A stretch of 64,000 bases of DNA from Paramacrobiotus metropolitanus (lineage: Eukaryota; Tardigrada; Eutardigrada; Parachela; Macrobiotidae). Both the position numbers and the translations under genes were made by a program. The stretch covers positions 62,001-126,000 of the forward strand of contig NW_026570362.1 of the NCBI RefSeq assembly GCF_019649055.1, given 5' to 3'. The notes beneath the pieces were generated by a model that was not told where the DNA came from, did not search any database, and worked only from the letters and a program-made list of their open reading frames with translations. Positions 23,802 through 60,758 of the stretch are shown here, one piece after another. The stretch's first letter is position 1, and every line of letters starts with the position of its first letter.

Positions 23802-26205
23802 ATGACTTCATTTGGCGTGATGCCGCGGTATCGGCCTGTATTAGCGGATGCCATCTGGATGAGCTATCGGAACACGGTGGCTGTTCAGATTGACGACGAC
23901 AACTGGTGGCTGGGATTCATTCAGGATATAGACATGGACGGCGAACGCGCCCTCATTCACTTTGCCTCCACAGAGGCCACGGAGCGCTGGATCCACATGG
24001 GCCGTGTCTGGGCGTTTCCGTTCTACGACTTCTCATTCGATAGCAAAATTTACGTTGCATTACGTGATTCGGTTGGCGGACCATTCCGCTTTCGAAAGGT
24101 CACATTGTTGAGTAAGTTCGTTGGATGTGACGAATCCTGTGTCATGTTCTACATTGCGACGAATTTCGAAATCACATGCCGCGACTGCACGCCTTACCGC
24201 ATCTGTGACGACCATCTTCCTACCACGAACTGCGAAATGGTCCATCAAGATCAAGTGGTCCAGTCTTTGCCGCCTCCGGGTGGGTCACTGTTGGAGCGTA
24301 AGAGTGCTTTGTTTTACACAAAGCACATTATTTTCTCCGACCAAACACAGAACTTATTTATGGACGCTTCGGACAAATTCCGCATCATCAAGCATCTGCG
24401 CGACGCTTTCAAACCTCCGCACAGAAAAGCTCTGGCCAGAACGCACGCGTGCCGCTTTTACTTGCGTGTTGAGCACGGCCTCGCAAGCTTTATACTCGCA
24501 AGTTATACATGGGACACACAGGGAGTCGGGGAGAAATTGAGGAGAATGCTGGAAACGCATTTAATTAGCAGGGACGAACTGCCGCCCATTCGATCTAGAG
24601 GCAGCGGAGGCACCCTTCCTCCGACAGCCGGTTAGTAGTCTGCTGTTAAATGTAGATTGGGCAACAGCTGTTAACGGATGTCTCACTAACCTGTCGTCTT
24701 GCCTCAGGTTTAGAGGGTGATACATTGCGAACCAATCATCAGCTGACGCCGTCGCTCCTGAGCGATATTCTGGCCCATCTGGACGTGCACTCCCAAATGC
24801 GCGCGAAACGGTAAGAGCGATTTGATAATTCACGAGTAAGTGTCGCCTCACGCCGGTTATTATTGCGACAGAGTGTGCGCCTTGTGGCAGCAGCTGTTGG
24901 ATAGTCCCCGCATGACGGAGAACGTCAGCATGACCTTTGAAAGCTGTTGGCAGCTGCAATGGGACAGCGACAACTGCTTCAAAGCGGCCACTCTCATGAG
25001 CCGCTCCATCACTTCCGCCACCACCAGCTTGACCGTTTTGCGATGCCTCCCTCCCAACCACATTCGATTTTTGTTAGAGTGGCTGGTTCGCTGCAATAGC
25101 AAGCTTAAACTAATCGTATTCAAAGATTATGCCAGCCCCGAACCGCATTATACAGAGCCCAAATTCCGGCAATCTCCCTTAAAACACCCGGCCGCACTGC
25201 TTGCATTACTTTACAAAAATGTGAGTGTCGCCATTCTGCTGTCCAACTGGACCGTCGGCAACTTGTTCGGTTCCACAGTATTCCACGCATTTGAACGTGA
25301 TCCGAATGCTCCGAATCTTCAGCCCGCTCATCTCCTGCGCGACAGCGAGCAGGAACTGATGCAGGACCTTACGGCGGACTCCCACGCTATGGAAATTGAC
25401 GCACTGCAGATCAGCATTCCGCGGCTGCTGATGCGCTGCAGCGAAGGGCGAACGCGCATGGCTGCGCGCTTTATGCACGCCCTCAACGAAAACTTCCCGC
25501 CGGTCACTGGAGAAATGCTGGCAAAGGTCACGGCTGTGCATGCGCGGTGGGTGCGCACTCTGGACTATCCCGAACAGTGGGAATCCATACGCAACTATAT
25601 ATGCTTGTAAGTGTACATTGGTCCTGAAGATGGTGTTGTGTGAATGCACAGTGCGTACCCCACCCATAAGCATAACGCTATACGGCTATTGTTGCTGTAC
25701 GGGTGTTGCTCTTCGTGAGGTGATGTGAATAGCAGAGAGCGCCTGTAACGTATCAGTACCTTACATAGCGCTGCCTTCTACACTGGCGCCACTTCGTCCA
25801 ACGGCTACGGTATCTGTTTGACAGTTGTAAGAAGTACTGTTACTACTGTATCGCTGCTGGGCAGAATCGCAGCGCAACTCCAAAAACAGGAATCAAATCT
25901 AGGCGAAGACTGGAAATAACAGTTGCTAAAGAAACAACACGACAAACCCGAACAGTATCGCCCACGTGCGTTTTCTGCAGTACTGTACATCTAGCAGCTA
26001 CCCAGATCGTCAGATTGTATATTATCACAACGCCGTAGAGTCATGCTTGCAACGAGATCTGCAGGCTCTTATGTGTTGCAGGTTTAGTGGTTTCCACCCG
26101 GATGGCGCGCTGCAGATGTGGGACAATGTGGATCTGCGGCTGCTGGATGTATCCGAATTAAGCAAACTGGCCATTTATGGCATTAACGAACTCTTCCGCG
26201 TATGA
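23802..26205 (+). CDS. F-box protein A with N-terminal Tudor/Agenet-like module, four exons
   Basis: Exons 23802-24630, 24708-24810, 24872-25606 and 26082-26205 join in phase through GT-AG introns (77, 61 and 475 nt). They give about 596 residues from the ATG at 23802; the ATG at 23820 (MPRYRP, shared with gene B) is an equally good start. Residues about 10-75 read WMSYRNTVAVQ…WWLGFIQDIDMDG…ERWIHMGRVWAFP, resembling a Tudor/Agenet-type barrel. Exon 2 plus the start of exon 3 encode LTPSLLSDILAHLDVHSQM…RVCALWQQLL, a good F-box match (Skp1-binding, SCF ubiquitin ligase substrate adaptor). The remainder is Leu-rich and may be a degenerate LRR-type substrate domain. The final exon ends GINELFRV. 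I do not know a named ortholog; the family looks lineage-specific. No lesion is seen. Confidence 0.8.
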
Positions 26206-26311
26206 GGCGTGTATAGGACCGAAAGCTGACAATGCGGATAGCGTTTGTGGTATTTAACTATTTATTCTGGCTTTGGCGTTTAGAGTGTGCGAAGCCACAA
26301 CACCAAGGGAA
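26206..26311 (+). repeat. Shared 3' flank of the inverted F-box duplication
   Basis: Sequence after the gene A stop is repeated in reverse after gene B (58218-58327), nearly base for base, up to …CACCAAGGGAAAAG. Identity then stops abruptly, marking the distal breakpoint of the duplication or conversion tract. Confidence 0.8.
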
Positions 26312-26972
26312 AAGCAATCATTCGGGCAAACACAGCAAGGCTTCCGAGGTTCCGGTGGAAGAATGCCGGTCGGCAACCAAACGTCACCATCACTTCCGCG
26401 TCGTCCGGATTATCATCCATTTCCGGTGGGGCTACCAGCAGCCCGGTGGCGGTAATTTCCAACAGCCAGGTGGTGCAATCATCCAGTGACCTTTCGTCAT
26501 TCTGCGGACAGGATTCGCTGGACCACATGGATTTGAATCCGGTAGTATCTGCTTCTAACAGTCGTGTTCCACAATCCAGCGGTTCCGGTTTATCACAAAC
26601 TTCCGGCGCCGGCTTAACCCGAACTTCCGGCTCCGGTTTCTGCCAAACTTCCGGCTCTGGTTTATCCCATACTTCCGGCTCTGGTTTATCCCAAACTTCC
26701 GGTTTATCACAAACTTCCAGTGGGCGAAATTCAGTGTTGCTTGTTCAAATCACTCCCGTTTCCGTTGATTCAAGTAATCGCGGTACGCAATAACCATCAT
26801 CATCCAATAGTTCCCGGGTGGATCGCGCTGGCCGGAAGCAGGACGGCGTGGATGAGTGGTCATCGTGGGCGAACACCGGCTACGACAGCAATATGACCTT
26901 GGTCGCAGTTGATTATGCGCAGACTGAAGGGCGTGGCCAGCTTAGTAGGCTGCTTTTCGTTGCTGCAGATTG
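26312..26972 (+). pseudogene. Ser/Gly-repeat ORF fragment with in-frame stop
   Basis: One frame runs from about 26312 to a TGA at 26970-26972 and is interrupted only by TAA at 26791-26793. It reads as Ser-rich low complexity (VTITSASSGLSSISGGA…), then a tandem repeat of SGSGLSQTSG-like units (about 26575-26720, about 24 bp per unit). After the stop it continues as SSNSSRVDRAGRKQDGVDEW…. The persistence of one frame across the stop suggests a once-coding exon that took a nonsense change. The gene is unrecognised, and the fragment starts right at the F-box duplication breakpoint. Confidence 0.45.
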
Positions 26973-27763
26973 ACCCCACCTAGCTGGAACTGTCCGGAAC
27001 GAAGAAGAGTGTGAGTTCGCTGGAGCAGGGTGGTGGACGCCATGTGCAGTGGGCGACAGCACAAGAAAGCAGTAAGAATTTCAGACAGCATTATGATGTG
27101 TTAATGACCAATATTTCCTTCAAAAATCGGTCGGTTTTCTAATAATTCTGTAAACGCTCCTTTCTGATCGCACGAATTTTGCGATTTCTGAGTTTCTAAG
27201 CGGATGGCGTAATTTTTTTCGTATTTGCGCGTGTGTTTTTATTTGCAACCGTGTTCAAGCTGTTATCGCTGGCGATAAATGCTGTGAAAAGATTAATGCC
27301 AAAGCCATCAAAACTGAAAAAAAGTTCCATCAGATGAAAAATTAATCACAAAAGAATATACAATAGCAACTAAGCACACACATAGATAAAAAATTAAAAC
27401 ATCAGAAAGACAATACTACCACAAACTCTTCCACAGGGAAAAAACTAAGTCAGAAAAAAGCTGAGAATTCTTCAGACTTTCATGGAATCCACCGTTTGAA
27501 AAATGATTCTTCGCCTTCTTCATCATTCCATTCGTCCATTGATCACTACTATAAAGCCAAAATCACATCTCTTAGATTAAAGTACCTGTTAACATCATCA
27601 ATAAACATGTCCTGAATTTCTGATCACGACAGACTGAGCAAATTCAGCGAAGACCACTGAAAATTTCAAGTTGAAAAAAATCTTCACTGGCTTTACTGTT
27701 TCGCGTGGGCCAAACCGTACGCGTTTCGCGTAATTCACATGAAATTGTTGCAGATGTACCGCT
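26973..27763. other. Intergenic, nothing recognised
   Basis: AT-rich sequence without a supportable frame. Confidence 0.35.
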
Positions 27764-27988
27764 TTACATCGAAAAGAAAGCTGAAAACCCAACATATCTG
27801 TCACTGTCATCGTCACTTTCCTCTTGCGGCTCGTAATCATCGTCCTCTTCATCCGTTCCCAGCTCCGACTCAAGCAGCACATCCAGCGGTATTTCTTCTT
27901 CTTCCTCAGAATCTCCCATGTCCTCTTCCTCCTGGTCAGAAGAGCACGGGCCGTCCTGTATATTATCCAGTTCGTTTTCATCGTTTGA
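27764..27988 (-). CDS. Terminal acidic exon of an unrecognised protein
   Basis: After a good acceptor (…gatcaatttcag) the minus strand opens with SNDENELDNIQDG. It continues as a dense Asp/Glu tract (EEEDMGDSEEEEEIPLDVLL, TDEEDDDYEPQEESDDDSD) and closes with GFSAFFSM and TAA, 75 codons in all. The frame has no Met near its start, which fits a last exon. Acidic tails of this type occur in chromatin and ribosome-biogenesis proteins, but that is only a composition argument. It lies downstream of the BTB-BACK relic on the same strand and could have been its last exon. Confidence 0.5.
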   Translation of the reverse strand, partial: SNDENELDNIQDGPCSSDQEEEDMGDSEEEEEIPLDVLLESELGTDEEDDDYEPQEESDDDSDRYVGFSAFFSM

Positions 27989-28215
27989 CTGAAATTGATC
28001 AAATCATTTCACGCACAAATCCCTTTTTCCCAGGACCGATAACCGGCCAGTAATGGTACACTAAAAATCTTACAAGCGATCCTTTTTTCTTAGTGAACTG
28101 CAGCAATCATTGTGACCGTTCAGGAAGCGGAAGAGCCGATGCGGTTTCCGAGAATTTGTACAGAAAAACTTCCAATAGCTTGGTGGGAAGCAGTAACCCT
28201 GTCTGTAAAAATACG

Positions 28216-30260: not shown

Positions 30261-30264
30261 TTTT

Positions 30265-30444
<180 letters not shown>

Positions 30445-30460
30445 TCCTCATTCACATGAC

Positions 30461-32690: not shown

Positions 32691-32711
32691 AAATTTAATA
32701 ATGCACCTCTA

Positions 32712-33078: not shown

Positions 33079-33080
33079 GC

Positions 33081-35729
33081 CTGCGACTGGATGGTGTCCA
33101 GTTTGATGCCATGGTGCTTCGATCGTTCCACCAGTAATTCCGGATCGTGGATGCGCTGCGCACCCGATAGAATCTCCTCACCGTGGATGAACATATTGTA
33201 TGAATTGGAGTAGCGCGGGCTGTTGGGGTCAGGCATGGTGTAGAAGGGCCGTACCGCCAAGGGATACTTGTCCAGGATGAAGAAATCGGTGTCGTATTTC
33301 GCCCGCACCAGTGTCCCGAGGAGTTTCTCACTGGGGGTGCTCAAATCGTCCTCATCGCCCATCTCCACACCGTTCTCGCGGAGTAGTTGGACGGCTTCGC
33401 GGTATTCGAGACGAAGAGATGGTTCTAACTTCTAAGAATTTAAACGGTTCCGCGGGATACTGCTGATTCACTGTGGCGATTTCTTCTGCGTAGTGATCAC
33501 GTAAACCCTGCAACCATTATACCGAGCATGAGACTCCGTTAAACGGTGAATAAACGTTAATTATTTGTTTAATAAACATGCTTTGACCAGAAAAGTCCTG
33601 AGTCGGCAAAGTATCAACCATTTTACACGAGACACTGTAGAGTAATGGTACTGCATGGGTGAAAGTACACAAAAAAAACAAAGTACCCAAAAAAAACAGC
33701 AAAAATCTGGTGCTAACTGTAAACCATCTGCGAAAGTTTTCTGTCATTTGGCATGCTTAGTTCACATTTTATCTGTCGGAAATCATTATCAGGAATAATA
33801 AGAAGGAATGAGATTTATGCTCATTATGCTTACAAATTGTTACGGTAATGGTTGGAAATTGATCAGATTATCGCAGAAGTTAACTTCGTCTTGGCGGCCG
33901 CATATCAAAACCCACGTCTACACTTCACATTTCTATTCACCTGACAAATTTTTACTTAACTTTTAGTTTATCGAAGTTCAAGGCGGCAAGTTTAATGAAC
34001 AGATTGTATTGTTGGCCAGTCAAGAAAACTGAACAGCCCTACCTTGAAAATCTCCACAAAGAGATTCCCAATCGTATCAGTGACTTCGTGATAGTGATAA
34101 TTAAACTCCATCTCCAACCCAATAAATTCCGTTAGACGGCGGTGTGTGTTGGAGTCTTCCGCACGAAAGACCGATCCGACCGTGTAGACCCGGTTGAAAT
34201 CGGAAGCGATGGCCATTTGCTTGTAGAATTGCGGGCTCTGCGCCATGTAGGCGCTGTTCTTGAAATAGCTAACCGCGAACACATTGGCACCGCCTTCGCT
34301 GGCCGCCGAGATGATTTTGGGTGTATGGATTTCCACAAAACCGAATTTGTCCAGAGTATCACGGAAGAGCTTCCACACACCGGCTTCCAAGCGGAACACC
34401 GCCTGATTGGTCGTGGTACGGAGATCCAGGACCCGGTTGTTTAATCGCGTATCATACAAAAAAAAAACAAATCGGCACAGAGTTAGTCATATGCAGCCGG
34501 AGGCGCCATTCTGTCAACATTTAGTTTTTTGTGGCGACTGTCAATGCCGAACAAAAAAAATACTGTAATGACACAGGTTTAAGGAACGCTCCAGCACCGT
34601 TTCAAGATCAAAGAGACCGCCGGTCCGGGTGCGCTGACCACGCCTCCCCTACGTTCCTTAAACCTGTGTCATTACAGTACGATATGTAAACCACCGTTTT
34701 CTGAATGAAACGGTAAGTTCGTACCCTAGTAGTTCACACTGACTTAACTTTTGTACTAGACTGTGGCACATACTGCAGTGTAAGTAATTGAGAGTTGAGA
34801 CACAGCGAAACAATCGTCGACAGTCAAATGCAGAAAAAAAACAGGTTATGAATTAATGATGTCAAAGAAATCGCAATAATTTACGATTTAATCATTATTT
34901 ATCAAATATTTTGAGTAATTACCTTTTGTAACGCAAACCTGATAGTCACTGCCCACTGAATAAAACGTAAAGTACTAGTATTTCAAAGAAAATTGATGAT
35001 TTTTAATAAAAATTAAGATTATGTTCGAATTTTGAATAATTATTCGTACAGGTATCTAGTCCAACAAAATTTCAAGTGTTTTGGCTTTACCTGATTAACA
35101 GTAATCTGCGGACCGTCCTCAGCATTCTCACTGCGCACCGCGTCCTCAATCAGCAGCGGCAACTGCGGCTCAGCCGCCGACACCACATACAGCTCCTCCA
35201 CGTGGACCTCCACGTCCTGCTGTGAGCAGCTCTCGATTTTCGGGTCGGCCTTCTTAACAATTCCCTTAATATCCACAATCGACTCCTTACTGATTCCCGC
35301 GGCAAATTTCACCATCTGTTTACTGATTTTCTCCCCTACGGCCAGATAGGCTTGCACGGTGAACTGCTGCTGACGCAGGACGAAGAAACACTGCTTTCCT
35401 TTCGCGCGACTGGTTTGGACGCGCGCACGGACCCATAAGGACTGATCGGCCACGGCCACGCCGAGATCTTTCAGTTTCGTGAGGGTGCGATCCGGTTTGG
35501 ATGTCGACTGGATCAGGGGGAGTTTACCGTAGAGATCTTTGGAGATGTCTTCGCCGTCGGGGCCGTCCGTGGCGGCCGCATTATCGCCGGCGGCTTGTTT
35601 CTTCTCCTGGATCAGTTCGGCTTTCTTGGCTGCCTTCTCGGCTTTCTTCTGGGCCTTCTTCGAGGGCTGCTGATTTTCCGCGTTCTGTGCGTCAGACGTT
35701 TTCAGGCGTGAGACGGAGTAACTGTAAAA
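33081..35729 (-). pseudogene. DARS1: Cytosolic aspartyl-tRNA synthetase, probably inactivated copy
   Basis: Exons in gene order are 35729-35091, 34453-34043 and 33507 to about 33081. Exon 1 has a Lys-rich extension followed by the anticodon-binding OB fold ([39 protein letters not shown]). Exon 2 has class II motifs 1 and 2 ([36 protein letters not shown]). Exon 3 has [18 protein letters not shown] and [20 protein letters not shown]. Three defects are seen. Exon 2 lacks an AG acceptor (the tract ends …ttgtat). A 7-bp tandem duplication in exon 3 (within 33422-33437) shifts the frame. Similarity ends near LDTIQSQ, so class II motif 3 (GGGIGLER) is missing and GC-rich repeat sequence takes its place. 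No start Met was found for exon 1, so a 5' exon is also missing. Conservation elsewhere is high, so the decay is recent or some lesions are assembly errors. Confidence 0.82.
34561..34679. mobile_element. Tc1/mariner-type MITE in the aspartyl-tRNA synthetase intron
   Basis: A 119-bp element has perfect 28-bp ends TACTGTAATGACACAGG… (34561-34588) and the reverse complement at 34652-34679. The outer TA on both sides fits a TA target duplication. There is no coding content. Confidence 0.88.
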
Positions 35730-35730
35730 C

Positions 35731-37580
35731 TGGGGCAAATGCGCAGTTTTAAATCAGAATGCCTTATCGCACGGTTCCGCTTTGCTGTTAAATCCGGTGA
35801 CGATTAAAGTTAACTGATTTTGCGAAATTGGGCATCATCAACACTGCATCGGCCACGCATTCGGGTGATAAGCTTGGAGCCTGGAATACTTGGCAGACGT
35901 ATGGTGTGGTGTGATTTCCATTAATTTATTAGCTTGCCGCATCTGATGCCATCTGTCATTGTTGAAACTTTAAGCCACACACCTTTTAATTATTCTTCTG
36001 TTTTTAACAATATTATTAGCTTTTACTTTATGAATTTTTATTTTTACGAAAAAGATGCTCTAGACTTTAAATAAACATAAAAAGGATTATTATACAAGTT
36101 ATTAGCATGGCCAAGCAGGCTAACAGGCGGGCAACAGCTTTGCATTTTGGAGCGATTTATTATCACTAGAAGTGGAGATTGCCGAAGTGAAGATGCCAAT
36201 ACAAATGCTTCCGGTGGTCTGCCGGAAGTCGGGCAAGAACTTGGAAACAGCAAAACTGCGAAATCTTTAGTAGTAAAAGTCCTTGCCGATATACTTATTT
36301 TTACTATCTGCTTTTGGAAGTTTACTTATTTTTACTTACTTTTCACAATTTTTCGGAACTTTTACTTACTTTTACTACTATTTCAATTTTTCCAAGGACA
36401 TTTACTTACTAAATTAAAGTAAATTTACTAAATAAATGTAATTACATGAATACTAACTATCTGTGCCAGGATTTCGGCCCCTCTCCTTTGGCGCCGGTGA
36501 TCTCAGCTTCTACTCATTCAATTTTCCTGCTTTAAAATGCTTTAAAAACCTCCCGATCACGCGGGTGTTCTAAGACCAGTCGACGTTGCCAGTTTGCAGA
36601 ACCTCAAGTCCAGTGGTCACTCAAAAGCTTGTTACCATGGATGCCATTGGGCTAACATGGGCGGGTTCACGCTCGTGTGCTTACTAATTTGCAAATTTCC
36701 AGGGAGACAGCTTATGTTCTAGCATTATTCTGATACGTAAAAAAATCTGAGATAGTCGCATGCCGATATTCATCCGTGCTCAGCTTGTTTAGGATTGAAA
36801 GTGTCGAATTGAGTTAGTTGCAAAGCGCTGAAAACTACTGAAAATGGTGCAGAAAAATTTCTTATGCATTAATCAAGCTATACAGGCGAATACTGCAAGG
36901 TAAATACTGCTGCTTTTTAGGGCGGCAGGCTGACAGCCAACTATACTGCGGACACTCACTTTACCTGCGAGAGGCGGCGGCTGACACGCCAGTTTTACAT
37001 AACGCTGATAAAACGAATTAGTAAATAATTTAGTAAATGATTTTTATTTATTCAACGCTAAACCTTAATATTTACTTACTTTTTACTATTCCGGCAGCAC
37101 ATTTACTTAGTTTTACTTACTTTGTTTCCAAAACCTTACTATTCACTAGACTTTTAATATTAGACGGACTTTTACTAAGTAAATGGCCATTATTTAATTT
37201 TATTTAGTAGCACAACACTAGAAATCTTGCATTTTTGCAGCCGCGCAGTTATCTGTGTTTCTGTGTTTGGATTTTTTGATGAAAATTGGCAGTCACTGAA
37301 TGTCAGAACTTGCAATTGCGAAAGAGTTTTACAGTTCGCTTTTACGTCTACCCCAATTCGTCAGAATGCGGATTGTCCGATCGCGGGACCAATACTTGAA
37401 GTCTTAAACCCAGTTGGAGTGCAGCAAGGAATTGCCTGTTCCGCTTAACTTAATCACGGCATAACCGTCACTGCAACACTCTCCGGAATCCGGATTGACG
37501 CTATTGTTCGCCAGCAATTAGACTCTAACAGCGCGCCTGTTGTCTTCCTGTGTTTCCATCGACAACTGATTATTACTTAA
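35731..37580. other. Intergenic, with TTTACTTACT-rich patches
   Basis: No gene is supported. Two clusters of TTTACTTACTTTTACTA motifs (about 36255-36440 and 37030-37200) flank a plainer core and are partly inverted with respect to each other. The right one ends in TTTAGTAGCACAACACTAG, reminiscent of a hAT terminus. This suggests a decayed DNA transposon of about 1 kb. Confidence 0.4.
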
Positions 37581-39698
37581 ATGGCTGCAATGGAAACGAA
37601 AAGCTCGAAATCGCGCAGAAGATCAAAATCCCGTAGACTAGGTATGATTTCTTTGTCCTTCTGATTTTGCACATCGCAAGTCTGGAACACCCTTGATTGT
37701 ACAGATCCTAGCATTGCTGAGTTACTGGAGAGCTTCATTGGAAATCTCCGAATGGAGGTGCAGTCCATAACCGAGGAAGGAATGCAGATGGAGTTTGATT
37801 TGATTGGCACGGTCCCTTCGATTGCTAATGCAGTTCGCCGCGTTCTTCTGGTCGAGGTAACTGTTCTACGCCTTAATAAACTGTTATACATCTCGCTTTT
37901 TTGCGAATTGCAAGCCCGCTCTTTGAATTTTATTGTCTGATTTCTGCTACATGCAAAATGATGCGTAATCATTGAAAAAAAGTTGCGAACCTTGAGCACT
38001 GATATATGTACGATTATTATATATGTATAATGTATTTGTTGTTGTGATTTTTTAATCGAACTCTTTGTGCGCTGCTCTTATTTGACAGGGAGTTCTGTAA
38101 TAATTTTGGGCAATTTGTGACTTAAAATTAAATTTTTCGGTTTTTGTTACAGTATTGCTTAATGCCTTGCCAAATTGTTAAAGATGAACGTATGTATTTG
38201 CTCGTATTATAATAGACCGGTTGTGTTTTACGTCATGCATACTCAATACTCAGTGAGAGAATTTGTTCAATGACACTGATTTTAAGTATCGCAGTACAAG
38301 AAGAAGTGCAACTTAAGTACCAAAACAGATGAGAAATAACAGGACAGTAAGGCAAGAAGTTATGGACGAAATTGATAAATGCATCGCTGTGTAAACGAAG
38401 ATGGTTTCATCTGTTTTTGTTCCCGCTTGTTTATATTTGTGTTATTTTGTCAGGTCCCCTCAATGGCACCAGAAACCGTCCTCTTAGAGCAGAACAACAC
38501 CGCCCTGCAGGACGAGGTGCTGGGCCACCGTATCGGCCTGATCCCTTTCCGCGCCGATCCCCGCAAATTCAAATTCCGCGAACTGAAATCCCGCTCCGAT
38601 CATCCGGACTACGCCCTGATCTTCGGCCTGAAAGTGACAGCCCCCAAGCAGTCCCTCGACACGGACAAGCGCTTCATCAGTACCAAAGTGTACTCCAAAG
38701 ACTTCTTCTGGACTCGTGATTCCCTTCTACACGATCCCTCCGAGAGCGATGAACAGCGTCGGCCGGTGCATGACGATATCCTGATCAATGTAATGAGGCC
38801 GAATCAGGAGATGGATCTGAAGATCCATGTGGTGAAGGGTATTGGGAAGGATCATATTAAATTCTCACCGGTCTCCTTGGCTTCCTACAGGCATTTGCCG
38901 TTGATCAAGTTGAACGACAAGACTATTGTGGAAGGAGAGGATGCGGAATTGCTACAACAGTGTTTTTCCAAAGGTCTGATTGATATTGTGGAAGACAAAA
39001 AGGGTGAGTTAGACAGAGGTGAAGTGGTGTACTGGAATCAGTAAGAAATTTGATGGGATATTGAGCGGTTGTTTATCTGCTGATAGTTGTGTCTCTTTTT
39101 AATATCGTCTCTTGAATTTCATCCCAGTTTGGCTAACGCCAAACCGAAAACACATTTTTACTCTCTTAAATCTGGATTGTATTGTCTTTAATCTCGATAC
39201 AGGCATGTTCTTTCGTTATAGTCTACTGATTTCTTTCACCAGTGCGATTTTTATGCATATTGCGTTGATAAATTGTTAAATGAATTGAATGAAAATGAGA
39301 ATTCAGAGCAAACTATTGAATCGTTTCTAATTAGCTGCAGTAAAGTGAATGTTTAATACTTTATCTACTGAAGTTTTTACGGGTTTTTAAGCAAGAGCGC
39401 AAGCGAATTCCATTTTATGGCGACGGTGTGACTAATATGTTTTTGTGGTGCAGGTAGGAGAAAGGCGAAAGTGATTAATCCGCGGTTGGATTGTGGAAGT
39501 CGCAATTTGCTGCGGTATCCGGAAATCAGCAAAAATTTGGAACTGGGTTCCGTTAAGGATCATTTTATTTTCTCCGTGGAATCTATTGGTGCCTTGCCGG
39601 CTGCTGTTTTAATTAAGGAGGCTTGTCGGGTTCTTAGAGAACGCTGTGAATATCATTTTCTTAGCATTGGCTGTGGTCGGCAAGACGCAGATGCTTAG
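37581..39698 (+). CDS. POLR1C: RNA polymerases I and III subunit RPAC1 (AC40), four exons
   Basis: Exons 37581-37641, 37705-37856, 38454-39003 and 39454-39698 join in phase through GT-AG introns (63, 597 and 450 nt) to give 335 residues; the human protein has 346. RPAC1 is the alpha-like subunit that pairs with RPAC2 to nucleate assembly of Pol I and Pol III. Seen: the alpha-motif region (LIGTVPSIANAVRRVLLVE), the dimerisation helix (LGHRIGLIPFRADPRKFKFR), the insert domain ending VHDDILINVMRPNQEMDLKI, then HVVKGIGKDHIKFSPVSLAS and the C-terminal VKDHFIFSVESIGALPA. The N-terminus (MAAMETKSSKSRRRSKSRR) is short and basic. The last exon ends in a lineage-specific Cys/Asp-containing tail. No lesion is seen. 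Confidence 0.95.
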
Positions 39699-47481: not shown

Positions 47482-47540
47482 ATCGAAAGAAATCTTTAGT
47501 GAAAGTCAAGCCGCGAAAACATTCGTCTTCTAATTTAACC

Positions 47541-50422
47541 ATGAGATTATGTAATATTAATGGAATATCTTCGAAATCTGATGAAGTAAAAATATTTTGT
47601 TCAGGAAATGATTTAATAGGACTGACTGAAACTAAGGACAGGCCTGGACTGCCAGACAAGATGTTTCGAGATGGTAGGTCTTTTAACGTTTTTCGTCGCG
47701 CACGTGTCGGTAGAGCAGGCGGAGGAGTTGCGTTAGTAGTTAAAAAGCACCTCGCTGGTAAAAGACGATCTGACCTTGAAAGAGCTGAATTTGAATTTGT
47801 TGCTGTCGAAGTTAGCGCTGTTAATATTATTGTCGGTGTGTTCTGTGGCGCCCCCGACGAGATTTCAGAAGTTTTACCGAAGTTTCTAAAACATCTTAGC
47901 AAAATTTTAACTGAAAATGATTCACAACGGTTTTTACTAATGGGTGATTTTAACTGCCCTAAAATAAATTGGCATTCTTTAAAATCGAATGTTGCGTACG
48001 AGCAATGTTTATTGAAATTTTTAAAAGAGTTCAACCTAAAACAAATAGTTTTGCTCCCAACGCGGAAAAGCAACACTCTCGACCTGATAATCGTACCTAC
48101 TAAATGGTACATTAATTCAGTTAACGTAGTCAGCCCACCAGCAAGTACGAATGACCACGACGGACTATCTGTCGTTCTTTGCCTTCCAAAAATTAAATCA
48201 ATCGAACCCCAGAAAATTGTATGGAAGTTTCTACCCGAAAACATCATGCCCTTTCGAAGTGCTCTTTTTGAAGTAGATTGGAAAGTCATTTTAAGGGATA
48301 AAAAGTGTTCTGAAATGACCCTTTTAATTGAAAATGAAATAATCAGTAAAGCTCTCCAGTTTTTTAACAAAGTAAGGCTAAAGCCAAAACGATTTTCATG
48401 TTCTTTCCCTCTTTCGCTAAAGCGCGCTATCAGAAGGCGTGATACCGCGCACAGGCGCTATGTAAGAGCTACGAATGAAGACTGTAAGAACAGATTAAGA
48501 GGGGTCTGGAAAACCTACTCAAAAACCTGCGACTTGTCGATACGAAATTTTATGAATCGTAAGCTACAGGATATCGCAACAGCCTCCCGACAAAACCCAA
48601 AAAAGTTCTGGTCGTATGTACGTAAAAGTGTTGACAAGCAGGGTATGCCGATTCTGCGATGTGGTGATCAGATTGCAAGCACCGACGAAGAGAAAGCTGA
48701 AGCGCTAAATACCCATTATTCGAGTGCACTTATTTCGTGTATGTCACATTGTTCAGATAGCGTAGTGACATGTAAGACACCCGTCAGTGTGGAAAACTTT
48801 GTTAACGAAACAGACATCTGGGAAGCCTTAAAATTGGTTGATATTTCAAAAAGCATTGGGCCGTTTGAGTTTAGCAACGAGCTAATTAAAATTTGTGGTT
48901 CTGCTTTAATAGCACCGTTAAAAATTTTATTTAACTGTTGTCTTTCTGATCGCAAATTCCAGAGACTTGGAAAATATCATATATTACGCCGGTGCCAAAG
49001 CAGTCGTGTGACCTTACGATTCCTAAAAGTTGGCGACCGGTCAGTAGCCTTCATCCGCTGTCTAAAGTATTCGAAAGACTGTTAAATGAACGACTGACGT
49101 CGCATCTGGTAAAACATGACCTGATCAGGGACTATCAGTTTGGGTATCGAAAAAAGCATTCTCCTGAATTACTGTGCCAAATTTTAGTGCAGAACATTAT
49201 GAATTACGTTGATAATGGAGTTGATGTCGACTGTGTTTTTCTTGATTGTAGCAACGCGTTTGATCGAGCTGATCATTTCACTATTTTGGAAAAACTGCGT
49301 AACCTAAATTTAAATGAACAGTTAATTGATTTATTTAGCGATTACTTACAGGGCCGATCTCAAGCTGTAATCGTAAATTCTAAAATTTCAGATATGAAAA
49401 AGGTCACAAGCGGTGTTCCTCAAGGATCGATTGTAGGTCCTAAGTTGTATCTTTGCATAATGAACGACATTGCAGATCTACCTGAAGACTGCGAAGTATT
49501 CATTTTTGCTGACGATGTTTGTGTTCTTTGTAAACTCGAATCGGAACAAGACGAACTAAAGCTCCAGTCAGCTTTAGGCAAAGTGTCCGACTATGCTACG
49601 CGACACCAACTGAAATTCAATCCAGCTAAATCTGGGCACATCCGTTTCACGAACAAACGCGCGAAGCTGCAGGAGAGCATATATACCTTAGAGTCTGAAA
49701 AAATCCCTGTTGCTGAAAACACGAAATATCTGGGTATTTATCTCGACCGTAAAATTAGCTGGAAATTCCATTGTGAGAATCTGGCTTGCCGTATGAAAAA
49801 GCGAATTCGTTATCTGAATGCGTTATTTCCTCTTCAAAATAGCGCCGCCCGAACAAAGCTATACGATGCACTGGTAAAACCGATTGCTGAATATGGCAGT
49901 ACAGTTACCTTTTACCAACAGAAACAGTCAGTTGACCTTTTAGAAAAATGTCAGTTCAGATTTTTGAAAACGATTCGGCTCGGACCACACAGTTTTGAGT
50001 ATTGCGAAACTCTCAGCAAAACCGGGTACAAATCGCTGTTATTCTGCCGCATTAAAAAATCTTTAGTCATGATGTACAGGATGTTGTTTGGCCTTATACC
50101 TCATGCTGACAAATTTTTTAAATTTCGTGGAACTATTGCTGCTGGCTCTGATTGTGTTGCAGGTAGGACACGTCAGGTAACAACCTTGGATTTGCACCCT
50201 TACGCAGTGGAACCCGTGGGAACCCGAGCTGCCGACGGACGGATCTTCCTCAGTGAACGAAGCTTTGTTTTCCTCATGGCCCGTTTATGGAATGAAATTA
50301 AGCTTCCCAAGGAGTCGTACGATTCTATCCGACGATTCGCGTCGTGTCTGGACTCCGTAAAATGGATGGATTTAAAGTGGACCGATTGTTTTATTCATAA
50401 AGATCTCAGATCTTTACTCTGA
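47541..50422 (+). pseudogene. LINE ORF2: AP-endonuclease plus reverse transcriptase, one frameshift
   Basis: The first part, from the ATG at 47541, is an exonuclease-endonuclease-phosphatase domain: LCNINGISSKSDEV, LIGLTETK, AGGGVALVVK, LLMGDFNCPKINW, TLDLIIV, STNDHDGLSV. The reverse transcriptase follows: SWRPVSSLHPLSKVFERLL, YQFGYRKKHSPELL, VFLDCSNAFDRADH, TSGVPQGSIVGPKLYL and FADDVCVLC (the catalytic YADD box reads FADD). The C-terminal thumb/linker region ends at 50422. The frame changes by one base near 48957-48962, so the protein is split between two overlapping ORFs. Otherwise it is uninterrupted for 960 codons, so the copy is young. Confidence 0.9.
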
Positions 50423-51300: not shown

Positions 51301-51309
51301 GGTAATAGA

Positions 51310-54300
51310 TTTATAAATCGCTACGTCTTCAATCCAAAACAATTAACTCTTAATTCCAGATTCAACTTCAAAAGCGATTAATATTTTTAAAAAATAGTTT
51401 CGGACATGTAGGGTGGGACATGTAGGGTGGCTATAAGTGGTTTTGAAACAAGTTTGAACGTTCTAAAATTCAGAAAAAAATTTTGAAATTTAGTACTGTG
51501 ACATTGTAGTATCTTTTAAAAAGTACTAGAAAAGTCAACATTTGCAGCAAATTTCTTTTTTATTTGGGTTATCAGTACGAAGTACTTAGCAACCCCAAAA
51601 TCTATAACAATTATAAAGTATTAATGGTCATAACTCATCAGCACAAGTCTTCATAAATCGCGAAGGCAACACTTCTGTATTTTAGAATTCAAATATATTT
51701 CTAAACATTTTACATTTTAGGAATGGTTATGCCGATACGACAGCGCACCGGCAAATATAGAATTGTGGATCATAAATGTCATTTGTCAGTCTTACGCCTA
51801 ATTCTTAATATATTATCGTACCTGAGACCGAAGACGCAACTGGTCCTAAAATTACTTTATTACCTCTGTAAACGTTTTCCAAAATTTTCGAAAGTTTCTG
51901 AAATTTAAAAAAAATTCAAGATGTTTGCAAAGCCGTTTGCATTCAAAATGTTTACTTCCAGCTATATTTTAGGATTTCCACGTTTGAAAAACGAGTTCAA
52001 AATAAAATTAAATTTCGATAAAAAATTTTGATTACAGTAATACCAGAGCACACATAATTCAGCTGCCGCAATAATATTTGTACTTGGTTAATTATTAAAA
52101 CTAGTGCCTCGTCTAACGTGCGGTTTATTCAAGCGCTTCCTCATTGTTTTTTAACGTAGTACCAGTATTACGCAGCATTATACGTAATACCATACTTTAT
52201 TGTTAAATGCAACCGATCGCGCTAGCGCGCGACGGACACCGGACACCGATTCAACAGAAGATGAGTTTGTCCTTTTAAAAAAATACTCGCAGATTGTGGC
52301 ACTTGGATTTGCCACATATGGACAGAATTATTTGGTTCTATTTATTTTACTTAGTATTTACTAATTATTGTGAGATTCTAGACAGTTCCAGGAAGGTCGA
52401 CAGATTTGCTTTTTTTGGTGTTTTTCGCAACAAAAATCAAAACAACACGTAAAAAGGTCATTCCAAGAGTTCCCCTTTTTCTCCGTGCCATCCGTGCTAT
52501 AGCTTCAATTACTGAAGTACGAGGATCTCGTATTTTCATACATAAGACGCAACTGGTCATAAAACTGCGTTGTTATATCTATAAAGGTTGCCTAAAATGT
52601 TCTCAGATTTCCCAACAGTTTTTCAGATTCCTTAAATACCTCTACCTTTTCCTTTAATACCTCTACAATTACTAAATAATTCTAAATAATTCTAAATAAT
52701 TCTAAATAATTCTAAATAATTCTAAATAATTCTAAATAATTCTAAATAATTCTAAATAATTCTAAATAATTCTAAATAATTCTAAATAATTCTAAATAAT
52801 TCTAAATAATTCTAAATAATTCTAAATAATTCTAAATAATTCTAAATAATTCTAAATAATTCTAAATAATTCTAAATAATTCTAAATAATTCTAAATAAT
52901 TCTAAATAATTCTAAATAATTCTAAATAATTCTAAATAATTCTAAATAATTCTAAATAATTCTAAATAATTCTAAATAATTCTAAATAATTCTAAATAAT
53001 TCTAAATAATTCTAAATAATTCTAACTAATTCTAACTAATTCTAACTAATTCTAAATAATTCTAAATAATTCTAAATAATTCAAAAGGTTCTGAATATTA
53101 TTTCTGAATGTTTCGAAATATTCGAAATATTTCAATTAATATTTTCTTTTAATTTTTGAATCATAATTCCGTACCTAAAACACAACTGGTCGCGCGCTAG
53201 CGCGACCGACACTTGTATATATATATCTAGATTTATAAATCGCTACGTCTTTATTCCAAGAAAATCAACTCGTAATTCCGGATTAAACTTTTAAAGTTGC
53301 TATAATTTTTAAAAAATAGTGTATGATACGTACAGTCCTACAAAGTGGTTTTGAGAAAAGGTTGTTTAGTCTGAGATTCAGGAAAAATTTTTGAAATTTA
53401 GTACTATGACATTGTAGAATGTTTGAAAGTTCTGGAAAGGTCAACAATAGCAGAAAATTTCATTTTATATAATTATACATTACGAATTCAAAGTACTTAG
53501 CAACTCGCAAGATGATAATAATAATAATTAAGCGGTAAATGTTGATGTCCATAAGTACGGGACTTCATTAATCGCGAAGGCATCACAAATCCACAACCAT
53601 ATTTTAAAATTTTTGAATATTTCTAAACATTTCGGGATAATATATTTGCAAAGGCGCTGTTTGGGAATAATATCTGAAATACCTCAAAAATTTGGAATTC
53701 CATAATTTAAAAAATTTCTTAAAATTTCAAAATGTTTTAAAAGCTGGCCCCGCGCAGCGGTGCCAACACCTGCATATTTTAGCATTTCTGCGTTTAAAAA
53801 AATTTTAAATTGATATTTGATAAAGGACTTTATTACAGTAATACAGCGGCAGTAATTACAGTCAGCTGCAGTAATTACAATAATATTTACGACACATTTT
53901 CACAAAACAGGCGATATATTTCCACATTCTTAATTTTTAAATCGAAACCCCATACCTTAAACTCAATTGGGCGCGCGCTAGCGCGACCAACACTTGTCTT
54001 TATCTTAAGAGTTATGCACTATTACGTCTTTTTACTTTTGTAATTTCAAAACTAATTTAAGACTCCTACATTCTAGCTCCAAATTTTATTAAAAATTCAG
54101 ACACGTGTCAGAAAAGATTCATTTGCAGTTTTAAAAAATGTTCAGTCTTGCAAACAGTTCCTAAAAATCTTTAAAGTTTTCGCAGTAATTAAGCAGTACT
54201 TTCCAAAAGCTCCTAGAAATTTCCCTTAGAATAACTTAAGGTTTTTACAGATATGGATCGCATGCTCAGCTTAGCAACTGCTTCGTTTCTACAAAACTTT

Positions 54301-55470: not shown

Positions 55471-55483
55471 TATATCTTTATCT

Positions 55484-55855: not shown

Positions 55856-56049
55856 GGTCACTTTAAGTCCAGCTTGGTCTTAAAAAATTCCATATTTTCC
55901 ATAGGGGTACGAGGCAAGCGACTAGGACTGGCTCAATCCGTACCAAGATCATGTTGCGCAGCGCGTTGCGGCTCCGACAACATTATCCGCCGCAACAAGA
56001 CGGCAGTACTACTCTTCGTAGCGTCCGACAAAGCATCTGCAAACGCCGC

Positions 56050-57310
56050 AACGTGCCGCATCAGCTGCAACACGGCTTATAAGCCGCAACGAGCAGCAAC
56101 GGGCCGCAACAGTGCTAGCCCGTATGCTGCACTGGGCTGCTGCAACGCCGCAACAGCCGCAACACGGCTTATAAGCCGCAACGTGCAGCAACGGGCCCGT
56201 TGCTGCGTGTCGCGGCTTATAAGCCGTGTCGCGGCTGTTGCGGCGTCGCGGCAGCCCAGTGCCAGCACACACGCTAGCGCTGTTGCGGCCCGTTGCTGCG
56301 TGTCGCGGCTTATAAGCCGTGTCGCGGCTGTTGCGGCGTCGCGGCAGCCCAGTGCCAGCACTGTTGCGGCCCGTTGCTGCGTGTCGCGGCTTATAAGCCG
56401 TGTCGCGGCTGTTGCGGCGTCGCGGCAGCCCAGTGCCAGCACTGTTGCGGCCCGTTGCGGCGTGTCGCGGCTTATAAGCCGTGTCGCGGCTGTTGCGGCG
56501 TCGCGGCAGCCCAGTACCAGCACTGTTGCGGCCCGTTGCGGCGTGTCGCGGCATATAAGCCGTGTCGCGGCTGTTGCGGCGTCGCGGCAGCCCAGTGATA
56601 CGCCAACACTGTTGCGGCTTGTCGCGGCATATAAGCCGTGTCGCGGCTGTTGCGGCGTCGCGGCAGCCCAGTGCCAGCACCACGCTAGCACTGTTGCGGC
56701 CCGTTGCTGCGTGTCGCGGCTTATAAGCCGTGTCGCGGCTGTTGCGGCGATGCAGTCTAGCAGCATACGGGCTAGCACTGTTGCGGCCCGTTGCTGCTCG
56801 TTGCGGCTTATAAGCCGTGTCGCGGTTGTTGCGGCGTCGCGGCAGCCCAGTGCCAGCACACACGCTAGCACTGTTGCGGCCCGTTGCTGCGTGTCGCGGC
56901 TTATAAGCCGTGTCGCGGCTGTTGCGGCGTTGCAGCAGCCCAGTGCAGCATACGGGCTAGCACTGTTGCGGCCCGTTGCTGCTCGTTGCGGCTTATAAGC
57001 CGTGTCGCGGTTGTTGCGGCGTCGCGGCAGCCCAGTGCCAGCACACACGCTAGCACTGTTGCGGCCCGTTGCTGCACGTTGCGGCTTATAAGCCGTGTTG
57101 CGGCTGTTGCGGCGTTGCAGCAACCCAGTGCAACACAAGGTCTAGCACTGTTGCGGCCCGTTGCTGCACGTTGCGGCTTATAAGCCGTGTTGCGGCTGTT
57201 GCGGCGTTGCAGCAACCCAGTGCAACACAAGGTCTAGCTAGCACTGTTGCGACCCGTTGCTGCACGTTGCGGCTTATAAGCCGTGTTGCGCTGTTGCGCC
57301 GTTGCGTCCT
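56050..57310. repeat. GC-rich satellite, 15 units centred on GGCTTATAAGCC
   Basis: Fifteen units of about 80-95 bp each carry the palindrome GGCTTATAAGCC (GGCATATAAGCC in two) plus TGTTGCGGCCCGTTGCTGC and CGGCAGCCCAGTG. The first two units (about 56060-56190) are inverted relative to the other thirteen. The switch is at the palindrome GCAGCAACGGGCCCGTTGCTGC near 56190. Long open frames on both strands (up to 374 codons) are a by-product of the repeat. Confidence 0.95.
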
Positions 57311-57517
57311 GTGTGTACGGTATGCTGAACTTTCTGCAACGAACGGATGCGCAACGCGAATCTTGGTCCGCAACGCGACAGTGACGTTAAAATCCAATGT
57401 TGGTACAGATTGAGCCACTTCTGTACCAGGTTGCTCGAGGTTCGGTCGTATCTTTGTCTGCTATAAACAGATCTGTTTGCCCTTTTCGGTCTATCTATAT
57501 TCTATAAGTATTACATA

Positions 57518-57803
57518 TTGCGTAATGATTTGGATTATCCTAATAACTATCCTTTATTTACTTTTCGGGATGGTACATTTCTTTATCGTTCTCGCTTCGC
57601 CGGCATGTTGAAGGCGCTTTTTCACGGTATTTCTACACTTGGCTGTATTACTCCACATAGCTTCCGTATCGGAGCTCCGACTACGGCTGCGAACTGTTAC
57701 CAGTCGGATATCTCTATTAAGCTCCGGTCGGTGGAAGAGCGATGCGTATCAAGATTACATCCGTTCGACCAAGCCTGTTGACGGTTTGCGGCCCTATGGT
57801 TGA
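57518..57803 (+). pseudogene. Tyrosine recombinase C-terminal fragment (DIRS/Crypton/Ngaro-like)
   Basis: The frame reads YPLFTFRDGTFLYRSRFAGM…LGCITPHSFRIGAPTTAA. After one extra base near 57721-57727 it continues in the next frame with GRWKSDAYQDYIRSTKP and a stop at 57801-57803. This is the C-terminal catalytic half of a tyrosine recombinase: the HxxR box (HSFR), the GRW box and the nucleophile Tyr (DYIR). Such enzymes mobilise DIRS, Ngaro and Crypton elements. The N-terminal half and any reverse transcriptase are absent, so this is a dead fragment. Confidence 0.8.
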
Positions 57804-58217
57804 TGGATTTGGGGGGTTGTTCGGGAAGTGTGTAATGGATCCGCTGCGTCGGTTACCTATTGTGGAGATGACCTACTAGATCCGCTGCGTCGGTTACATT
57901 GGTCATCGATACCATGCATTAACCCCCAAAGTTCCATGAAAGTCATTGCTGAGGTGCTCGCGGAGTCTGTCTTAACGTTACGTTTATTAAACCAATACGT
58001 TTTCGGTGAAGAGCGGAAACCCATGATTTATCCTACAACCCAGAGTGCATCACTTAAGAGAATACAAAACGAGACGTCAAAAATGAACAAAACTGAAAAG
58101 CTGAGCATGGCAAAATGATTTTTCCTACAAAGGAAGCAGCTCTTGATAACCAGCGATGACGAACCCGCGGTAAATTGTTAGCTGCTGGTTGCCTCGTTTT
58201 GCGGTGATACTGTTCCA
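57804..58217. other. Spacer with a small direct repeat
   Basis: GATCCGCTGCGTCGGTTAC occurs twice, about 42 bp apart, near 57838-57899. A 96-codon frame at 57828-58118 is not recognised and may be chance. Confidence 0.4.
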
Positions 58218-58327
58218 TCTTTTCCCTTGGTGTTGTGGCTTCGCACACTCTAAACGCCAAAGCCAGAATAAATAGTTAAATACCACAAACGCTATCCGCA
58301 TTGTCAGCTTTCGGTCCTATACACGCC
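58218..58327 (-). repeat. Shared 3' flank of F-box gene B
   Basis: Reverse copy of 26206-26311; identity ends at the same base as in gene A. Confidence 0.8.
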
Positions 58328-60758
58328 TCATACGCGGAAGAGTTCGTTAATGCCATAAATGGCCAGTTTGCTTAATTCGGATACATCCAGCAGCCGCAGA
58401 TCCACATTGTCCCACATCTGCAGCGCGCCATCCGGGTGGAAACCACTAAACCTGCAACACATAAGAGCCTGCAGATCTCGTTGCAAGCACTTGACTCTTA
58501 CGGGCCTACGGCGTTGTGATAATATACAATCTGACGATCTGGGTAGCTGCTAGATGTACAGTACTGCAGAAAACGCACGTGGGCGATACTGTTCGGGTTT
58601 GTCGTGTTGTTTCTTTAGCAACTGTTATTTCCAGTTGGTCTTCGCCTAGATTTGATTCCTGTTTTTGGAGTTGCGCTGCGATTCTGCCCAGCAGCGATAC
58701 AGTAGTAACAGTACTTCTTACAACTGTCAAACAGATACCGTAGCCGTTGGACGAAGTGGCGCCAGTGTAGAAGGCAGCGCTATGTAAGGTACTGATACGT
58801 TACAGGCGCTCTCTGCTATTCACATCACCTCACGAAGAGCAACACCCGTACAGCAACAATAGCCGTATAGCGTTATGCTTATGGGTGGGGTACGCACTGT
58901 GCATTCACACAACACCATCTTCAGGACCAATGTACACTTACAAGCATATATAGTTGCGTATGGATTCCCACTGTTCGGGATAGTCCAGAGTGCGCACCCA
59001 CCGCGCATGCACAGCCGTGACCTTTGCCAGCATTTCTCCAGTGACCGGCGGGAAGTTTTCGTTGAGGGCGTGCATAAAGCGCGCAGCCATGCGCGTTCGC
59101 CCTTCGCTGCAGCGCATCAGCAGCCGCGGAATGCTGATCTGCAGTTTGTCAATGTCCATTTCGCGCGACTCGAAAGTGAGATGCCGCATCAGTTCTTGCT
59201 CATTTGCATGCAGCGGATTGGCGGCCAGCTCTTGCGGCCCATACTGCTTACACTCGAATGCATAGTGCATTGTCGGTCCAAACAGATCGCCGACGGTCCA
59301 GTTGAACAGCACAATTGCCTGACAGACGTCTTTGTACGCCATCGCAAGTAGTGCGGCCGGATGTTTCAGAGGTTTTAGGGATGGACGTGGGATGTTCTCC
59401 GGCTTGCGGCTAATGTGGTCTTTGCAAACTATTAATGGCAGCCGGATTCGCATGCCTCTCAGCCACGTTAACAAGAAACCGATGTTACCGGGAGACGGGA
59501 ATCGCAAAACGGTCAAGCTGGTGGTGGCGGAAGTGATGGAGCGGCTCATGAGAGTGGCCGCCTTGAAGCAGTTGTCGCTGTCCGATTGCAGCTGCCAACA
59601 GCTTTCAAAGGTCATGCTGACGTTCTCCGTCATGCGGGGACTATCCAACAGCTGCTGCCACAAGGCGCACACTCTGTCGCAATAATAACCGGCGTGAGGC
59701 GACACTTACTCGTGAATTATCAAATCGCTCTTACCGTTTGGCGCGCATTTGGGAGTGCACGTCCAGATGGGCCAGAATATCGCTCAGGAGCGACGGCGTC
59801 AGCTGATGATTGGTTCGCAATGTATCACCCTCTAAACCTGAGGCAAGACGACAGGTTAGTGAGACATCCGTTAACAGCTGTTGCCCAATCTATACTTAAC
59901 GGCAGGCTACTAACCGGCTTCCTGTGGGAGGGCTCTTCGAGATCCAATTGATGGGAGGTCAACCCGGCTGCTTAAATGTGTCTGCAGCACACTGGCCAAC
60001 GTGACTTCCGGAGCCAGGGCAGCCGGCGCGTTCCATGCGCGACGCGCGTTCCACGTGCGACTGGCCAGAATAAACATGCACCCATCTGGCTGCACACGCA
60101 GGAAAAAGCGGCACTGGTACACTGTGGTCACCGCTATCCCGAGTGGTGGTTTAACAGCGTCGCGCAGGTGCTTGATGATGCGGAATTTATCGGAGGCGTC
60201 GCGCAGAACATTGTGGGCCTCCGGAAAGGGAATAAAGTGTTTGGTGTAGAGGAGACCGCTTGGTCTCTTCAACAGAGGCGGACCCCGAGGCGGCAAAAAA
60301 CCGGTAACTTGGGCTTTGTCGACAATTTCACAATTAACCGTTGGCATGGCTTCGTCACAGTTGCCGCAGTCGGATGGCAACTGCGTTATGATGTTGAACA
60401 AGTCGCAAGAGGCGTAACAACCAACCAGGTGACTCAGCCATGAAGCGGGTCGGAAGCGGAACGGACCGTTATCTTCGTCACGCAAGGCGACATAACATTC
60501 ACGGCTGTCTTTGTCATCGTCGTCTTTGTCGCTAATTGCTAGGCTCTCCCAGTAGTATGGCAACGTCCAGACACTGCCCATGTGGATCCAGCGCTCCGTG
60601 ACCTGCGTCGAGTCAAAGTGAATAAGGGCGCGTTCGCCGTCCATGTCTATGTCCTGAATGTATCCCAGCCACCAAGTGTCGTCTTCGTTCTTAACTGCCA
60701 CCGTGTTCTGGTAGCTCATCCAGTTAGCACCCGTCAACAGCGGCCGATACCGTGGCAT
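58328..60758 (-). CDS. F-box protein B, inverted paralog of gene A, four exons
   Basis: Exons in gene order are 60758-59915, 59837-59735, 59673-58942 and 58451-58328. Splice sites are at the same places as in gene A, all in phase, giving about 600 residues from MPRYRP. It has the same layout: N-terminal Tudor/Agenet-like module (WMSYQNTVAVK…WWLGYIQDIDMDG…ERWIHMGSVW), an F-box across exons 2 and 3, and a Leu-rich C-terminal part ending …FRV. Exons 2 and 4, both ends of exon 3 and all introns are almost identical to A. The second half of exon 1 (which includes an insert rich in Asp and Lys) and the middle of exon 3 are strongly diverged. An upstream GTG sits where A has its first ATG, so the shared start is MPRYRP. 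It is probably functional, as a putative SCF-type ubiquitin-ligase adaptor. Confidence 0.8.

What the first reader, a model, noticed from the sequence alone, without database searches (positions are those of the whole stretch)
23802..60758. Two inverted F-box genes share near-identical introns but have diverged protein blocks
Genes A (23802-26205) and B (58328-60758) match almost perfectly across intron 1, exon 2, intron 2, the 5' part of exon 3, the 3' part of exon 3, intron 3, exon 4 and 100 bp of 3' flank. Yet the second half of exon 1 and the middle of exon 3 (about 25040-25410 in A) differ at many residues. Introns better conserved than coding sequence is the reverse of normal constraint. 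It points to gene conversion of the framework combined with diversifying selection or cassette exchange in the putative substrate-binding parts. Rapidly diversifying F-box adaptors are known in nematodes and have been linked to defence.
Basis: partly seen in the sequence, partly recalled or inferred. Interest (0 to 1): 0.85.

Follow-up and report, generated by a model that had tools for sequence, protein, structure and literature searches.

The report
Tardigrade F-box genes copying their framework
Two long-separated relatives of one gene family in a water bear have recently had the same middle-to-end part, introns included, copied from one to the other, while two protein stretches stayed as different as in any other pair; the process, gene conversion, is known, and the gene family itself looks unusual.

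Summary
A (23802-26205, +) and B (58328-60758, -) are intact four-exon F-box genes of a tardigrade (by assembly statistics Paramacrobiotus metropolitanus), not a nematode. Two tracts (A 24653-25044 and 25403-26314), spanning introns and 110 bp of 3' flank, are almost identical. They end abruptly at a 62% identical exon 3 middle, a 62% identical rest of exon 1, and unrelated outer flanks. Framework dS is 0.012 against 1.36 in the middle, the most extreme of 335 usable paralogue pairs.

Best reading: two old paralogues whose framework was recently overwritten by interlocus gene conversion; the islands kept ordinary family-level divergence. No donor for the islands was found (nothing over 100 bp above 72%), so recent cassette exchange is unsupported. 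A-B dN/dS in the islands is 0.3. Codon mixture tests put an omega>1 class mainly in these blocks, but one trimmed test loses significance without A and B. A heterology barrier explains the islands equally well.

The family has at least about 148 exon 3 loci. Its exon 1 is predicted to fold like the FMRP tandem Tudor/KH0 module, an F-box architecture that my paper searches did not show.

The parts
23802..26205 (+). Gene A, four exons: 23802-24630, 24708-24810, 24872-25606, 26082-26205; 596 aa
   Evidence: open spliced frame, GT-AG introns; F-box PF00646 E 1.5e-4, 22.0 bits against cut-off 20.5
58328..60758 (-). Gene B, four exons: 60758-59915, 59837-59735, 59673-58942, 58451-58328; 600 aa
   Evidence: open spliced frame, GT-AG introns; F-box PF00646 E 1.0e-4, 22.5 bits
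24653..25044 (+). Conversion tract one in A: end of intron 1, exon 2 (first half of F-box), intron 2, exon 3 5' part
   Evidence: 3 mismatches in 392 bp against B
59501..59892 (-). Conversion tract one in B
   Evidence: same alignment
25403..26314 (+). Conversion tract two in A: exon 3 3' part, intron 3, exon 4, 109 bp past the stop
   Evidence: differs from B only at two indel sites in intron 3
58219..59145 (-). Conversion tract two in B
   Evidence: same alignment
25045..25402 (+). Island in A: exon 3 middle, family-wide variable block
   Evidence: 219/355 against B; entropy and change-points
59146..59500 (-). Island in B: exon 3 middle
   Evidence: same alignment
24027..24630 (+). Unconverted rest of exon 1 in A (second Tudor-like and KH0-like part)
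   Evidence: 359/577 against B; dN 0.40 dS 1.41
59915..60758 (-). Exon 1 of B, predicted FMRP-like tandem Tudor/KH0 fold
   Evidence: model pLDDT 74; Foldseek best 4qvz_B E 6e-7

Best explanation
A and B are old members of a large tardigrade F-box family, lying inverted about 32 kb apart. Recently a double-strand break or stalled fork in one of them was repaired from the other, overwriting exon 2 to the 3' flank, introns included, in one event with a skipped stretch or in two events (shown: the tract pattern; inferred: the repair route). The exon 3 middle and the rest of exon 1 were not overwritten and keep the divergence the two genes already had. The family-wide low homology of those blocks (about 60% identity) would by itself stop heteroduplex from spreading, and selection for different recognition surfaces may add to it (inferred). 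The products are probably SCF-type adaptors: the F-box half docks on Skp1, the variable blocks and the Tudor-like head would bind targets (inferred).
For: Sharp edges and identity table; framework dN 0.003 dS 0.012 against middle dN 0.412 dS 1.357, ratio 112 against a median of 1.47 in 335 usable of 406 pairs; run test, strongest of 435 pairs; block trees: A-B path 0 and 0.011 in the two framework blocks, 0.70 in the middle, where B is nearer to L011, L023, L015, L012 and L014 than to A; no donor for the islands; outer flanks unrelated; a second inverted pair on C24 shares 98.9% over 2.5 kb from exon 2 to the 3' flank while its exon 1 is at 74-87%; L059-L062 share a short near-identical tract in the exon 3 5' part (0.002). 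Variable-block edges estimated from 27 other genes are codons 56 and 169, A-B edges 59 and 178.
Against: In the C24 pair the exon 3 middle is also 99.7% identical, so the block can be converted. The A-B 3' edge (178) lies outside the bootstrap range 169-173 of the family edge, and the 5' edge (59) just outside 48-58. Sisterhood of A and B in the middle is not rejected (p-AU 0.161). Direction, number of events and reciprocity cannot be told from one haploid assembly.
Confidence: 0.87

Rival explanations
1. Selection keeps the islands apart: conversion reached the whole gene repeatedly, and only products with distinct recognition blocks survived.
For: An omega>1 class is found in the exon 3 middle (14 genes: 2dlnL 15.65, 0 of 250 simulated sets as high; gap-trimmed 8.14, p 0.012) and the rest of exon 1 (13.45, p 0.0066; trimmed 5.20, p 0.033), and not in the exon 3 flanks of the same genes or the exon 1 head. 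An independent 15-gene clade gives 19.23, p 0.0099. The C24 pair shows that the middle can be converted.
Against: Trimmed test without A and B: 2dlnL 1.24, p 0.21. In the other clade the exon 3 3' flank also gives a weak signal (4.23, p 0.049, weight 0.015). All 10 other sister pairs tested have dN/dS of 0.28-0.68 in the middle. The tests assume no recombination and constant synonymous rate, and the A-B blocks are near saturation.
Confidence: 0.3
2. Cassette exchange: A and B were recent whole-gene duplicates and one of them received its exon 3 middle from a third paralogue.
For: Several paralogues share short runs; the island has sharp edges.
Against: No match over 100 bp above 72% for either middle; the higher ones (75-83%) cover 61-83 bp. 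It would also have to explain the diverged exon 1 and 5' flank.
Confidence: 0.05
3. Assembly or polishing artefact: Canu/Illumina processing made the two frameworks alike.
For: The published assembly is Nanopore plus Illumina (passages) and is reported with low recent BUSCO completeness (passages).
Against: Other paralogues differ by about 20-25% in these blocks, far more than polishing could level, and the edges fall in unique sequence; two indels in intron 3 remain distinct.
Confidence: 0.04

Closest known systems
fog-2/ftr-1 of Caenorhabditis elegans (F-box family, gene conversion review PMC3966223; passages seen)
   Same: F-box paralogues with conversion tracts that include introns, next to a diverged terminal part; inverted pairs are also reported to convert
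   Different: tandem neighbours 763 bp apart in a nematode, tracts of tens of bp; here inverted, about 32 kb apart, 392 and 912 bp, in a tardigrade
GOT1p1/GOT1p2 of Tigriopus californicus (PMC3728101; abstract and outline seen)
   Same: mosaic of high- and low-divergence regions, islands of divergence persisting in the face of conversion
   Different: metabolic enzyme pair studied across populations; here one assembly and a large adaptor family
FMRP/FXR N-terminal tandem Tudor plus KH0 domain (4qvz, 4ova, 3h8z)
   Same: predicted fold of exon 1; the 8 matches with E at or below 0.001 are all FMRP or FXR2
   Different: rmsd 6.4-9.4 and TM by target 0.44-0.51, sequence profile not significant (E 0.15), and here fused to an F-box
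Large nematode F-box families (PMC5041008, passages)
   Same: lineage-specific expansion of F-box genes, suspected role in pathogen resistance
   Different: no Pfam C-terminal family matched here; other phylum

Membership tests
Interlocus gene conversion | abrupt identity change within the gene, not at exon borders only | tested here: met
   edges at 24652/24653, 25044/25045, 25402/25403, 26314/26315
Interlocus gene conversion | synonymous divergence in the tract far below the rest of the same pair | tested here: met
   0.012 against 1.357
Interlocus gene conversion | run of identity longer than expected in a family alignment | tested here: met
   153 sites, 0 of 1000 shuffles; 61 third-position sites, 1 of 1000
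Interlocus gene conversion | non-reciprocal transfer, donor unchanged | not testable with these tools
   one haploid assembly, no close relative genome held
Diversifying selection on the islands | dN/dS above 1 between A and B | tested here: not met
   0.30 and about 0.28
Diversifying selection on the islands | site class with omega above 1 across the family | tested here: inconclusive
   significant and in one clade, not significant in the trimmed set without A and B
Cassette exchange | a near-identical donor elsewhere | tested here: not met
   assembly may be incomplete
F-box adaptor (SCF) | F-box above curated cut-off | tested here: met
   22.0 and 22.5 bits against 20.5
F-box adaptor (SCF) | Skp1 binding | not testable with these tools
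   needs an experiment
FMRP-like tandem Tudor/KH0 | fold | tested here: met
   Foldseek E 6e-7, prob 1.00, on a model of pLDDT 74; second aligner not available
FMRP-like tandem Tudor/KH0 | sequence kinship | tested here: inconclusive
   top profile hits FXR2 E 0.15 and FXR1 E 0.24; no FMRP or Agenet family in Pfam scan of 12 members

The most novel reading that the evidence does not exclude
A tardigrade has built a repertoire of about 150 or more adaptors that join an FMRP-like Tudor/KH0 reader to an F-box, and ectopic conversion keeps the Skp1-docking framework uniform while two recognition blocks stay diverse under selection, as in an innate immune or self/non-self receptor repertoire; breaks caused by desiccation could feed the conversion.
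Probability: 0.15. Interest if true: 0.8.

Novelty: new variant of a known kind. Interest (0 to 1): 0.5.

Why it matters
The pair is a clean natural example of conversion sparing the variable parts of a protein, with both tracts and islands in one gene and a large family for comparison. It warns that trees or selection tests on whole genes of this family will mix two histories. If the exon 1 fold is right, the family is an expanded F-box group with a chromatin- or RNA-reader-like head in a tardigrade, whose target choice could be tested directly.

Tried and rejected
Cassette exchange from a third gene: rejected for lack of a donor. Pair-level positive selection between A and B: rejected, dN/dS 0.3. 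Family-wide homogenised framework around a hypervariable cassette: not supported as a rule; dS in the middle over dS in the framework has a median of 1.47 in 335 usable pairs, and the near-identical-framework-with-diverged-middle pattern was seen only in A-B, with a shorter tract in L059-L062. Nematode origin: rejected by assembly statistics. Exon 3 structure: model pLDDT 69.7 and no PDB match with E at or below 0.001, so no fold is claimed. Donor direction: a B-L051 run across the 3' edge (global 0.034 and 0.049) hints that B is the donor, too weak to claim. One search was a throw-away pattern used to learn where the window lies. The framework bootstrap p of 0.0476 is a tie artefact at 2dlnL 0.00. 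One search used a partly hand-picked subset of exon 3 places; it was redone with all 150 listed rows. Of 43 distinct gene loci, 13 were left out of the exon 3 codon work for broken frames, stops or a deletion; L023 was left out of the exon 1 codon work because its first residue is written differently in the alignment; the last part of the script stopped there and was redone.
Full report
What is there. The window is C142:62001-126000 of a genome of 169,799,020 bases in 533 contigs whose longest contig is 4,484,719. The published Paramacrobiotus sp. TYO assembly has 170,483,395 bases, longest scaffold 4,484,941 and GC 43.46% (passages of PMC8277472); the window has GC 44.05%. I infer Paramacrobiotus metropolitanus, a tardigrade. 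Genes A and B are each four exons with GT-AG introns and open spliced frames of 596 and 600 aa, and each has an F-box above the Pfam cut-off, spanning exons 2 and 3.

The mosaic. Full alignment shows four levels: unrelated outer flanks (84/190 and 74/180), 82% over the first 225 bp of exon 1, 62% in the rest of exon 1 and in the exon 3 middle, and near identity in two tracts, 24653-25044 (3 mismatches in 392 bp) and 25403-26314 (two indel sites in intron 3). Tract one has 3 substitutions, tract two none outside the indel sites.

Is it exceptional? Exon 3 was aligned for 30 loci with an open frame, out of 43 distinct ones fetched; 13 were excluded for broken frames, stops or a deletion. A-B has dS 0.012 in the framework and 1.357 in the middle, ratio 112; the next highest of 335 usable pairs (of 406) is 3.8, the median 1.47. 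In a GENECONV-type test A-B is the strongest of 435 pairs. That test treats all polymorphic sites as exchangeable although the middle varies more, so weaker runs in conserved parts should be read with care.

Age of the islands. In the middle, A is as close to L011, L043, L051 and L014 as to B (nt identity 0.60-0.64 against 0.61), and B is closer to L023 and to seven other loci than to A. In the tree of the middle A and B are not sisters, although sisterhood is not rejected (p-AU 0.161). DNA search of the whole assembly with each middle gave no match over 100 bp above 72%; short matches of 61-83 bp reach 75-83%. With exon 1 the nearest copy to A is B at 68%, while B has several copies at 69-70%. 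So the islands carry old, ordinary divergence; the framework is what changed.

Other pairs. On C24 an inverted pair 25 kb apart is 98.9% identical over 2.5 kb from just before exon 2 to beyond the gene, including the exon 3 middle, while its exon 1 aligns at 74-87%. L059-L062 share 95/100 bp in the exon 3 5' part between stretches of 48/81 and 66/100 (run test 0.002). Conversion in the family is thus repeated, and it can cover the middle.

Why the islands survive. The variable block estimated from 27 other genes runs from codon 56 to 169 (bootstrap 48-58 and 169-173), the A-B island from 59 to 178; 133 of 20,301 random placements are as close. Both a heterology barrier and selection predict this. 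Selection: M0 omega is 0.52 in the middle, 0.19 and 0.17 in the exon 3 flanks, 0.18 in the exon 1 head and 0.39 in its rest. A mixture test with my own script finds omega>1 classes in the middle (14 genes, 2dlnL 15.65, 0 of 250 simulations; gap-trimmed 8.14, p 0.012) and the rest of exon 1 (10 genes, 13.45, 0 of 150; trimmed, 9 distinct genes, 5.20, p 0.033), with 0.00 in both exon 3 flanks and the exon 1 head. Against this: trimmed and without A and B the middle gives 1.24, p 0.21; in the other 15-gene clade the middle gives 19.23, p 0.0099, but the 3' flank also 4.23, p 0.049. All ten other sister pairs have omega 0.28-0.68 in the middle. I call selection likely in the family but not shown for this pair.

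The protein. Exon 1 of B modelled with 12 relatives has pLDDT 74.0. Foldseek's 8 matches with E at or below 0.001 are all FMRP or FXR2 N-terminal domains (best 4qvz_B, E 6e-7, prob 1.00, TM by target 0.48, rmsd 9.4). A sequence profile ranks FXR2 and FXR1 first but not significantly (E 0.15, 0.24), and Pfam names no such domain in 12 members. Exon 3 has pLDDT 69.7 and no PDB match. The exon 1 and exon 3 modules lie in order on one strand in 42 of the 60 best exon 1 places within 3 kb (5 of 60 on the wrong side, 0 of 60 on the other strand), using the 150 exon 3 rows listed. These 150 rows merge to 148 loci; 672 first-look candidates were reported and 150 scored, so the family is at least that large, broken copies included.

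Literature. fog-2/ftr-1 and other C. elegans pairs show conversion in F-box and inverted genes and through introns (passages of PMC3966223); islands of divergence under conversion are described for GOT1 in a copepod (abstract and outline of PMC3728101). Searches for tardigrade with F-box terms and for Tudor, FMRP and F-box returned no paper on this family (listings); tardigrade with gene conversion gave 18 papers, 10 listed, none about such genes by title. The library holds open-licence papers only.

Verdict. Confirmed observation; gene conversion between old paralogues, a known process; cassette exchange unsupported; diversifying selection possible. The most surprising part lies beside the finding: the predicted Tudor/KH0-F-box architecture and size of the family.

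Noticed in passing
window 59915-60758 (-) and 23802-24630 (+): Exon 1 is predicted to fold like the FMRP/FXR tandem Tudor plus KH0 domain, fused to an F-box.
   Followed up: partly
C24:155870-158368 (+) and 181536-179053 (-), loci L014, L017, L069-L072: A second inverted F-box pair, 98.9% identical over 2.5 kb including introns and the exon 3 middle, exon 1 diverged.
   Followed up: partly
L025 and L030 (C8): Direct-oriented pair at about 98%; L030 lacks about 465 bp across the exon 3 end and intron 3 start.
   Followed up: no
C142:136352-136521, about 10 kb beyond the window end: A third stretch related to the exon 3 middle of B (67%) on the same contig.
   Followed up: no
window 47499-50422 (+): Non-LTR retrotransposon-like frames between A and B: endonuclease (PF14529, PF03372) and reverse transcriptase (PF00078), in two overlapping frames.
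   Followed up: no
window 52667-53086: Nearly perfect array of a 10-bp unit, about 42 copies.
   Followed up: no
window 56194-57306: Array of 81-92 bp units, 82-86% matches, with long open frames on both strands.
   Followed up: no
window 35043-35738 (-) and 38379-39041 (+): Exon with an OB-fold anticodon-binding domain (PF01336) and one with an RNA polymerase Rpb3/RpoA insert domain (PF01000), ordinary housekeeping genes.
   Followed up: no
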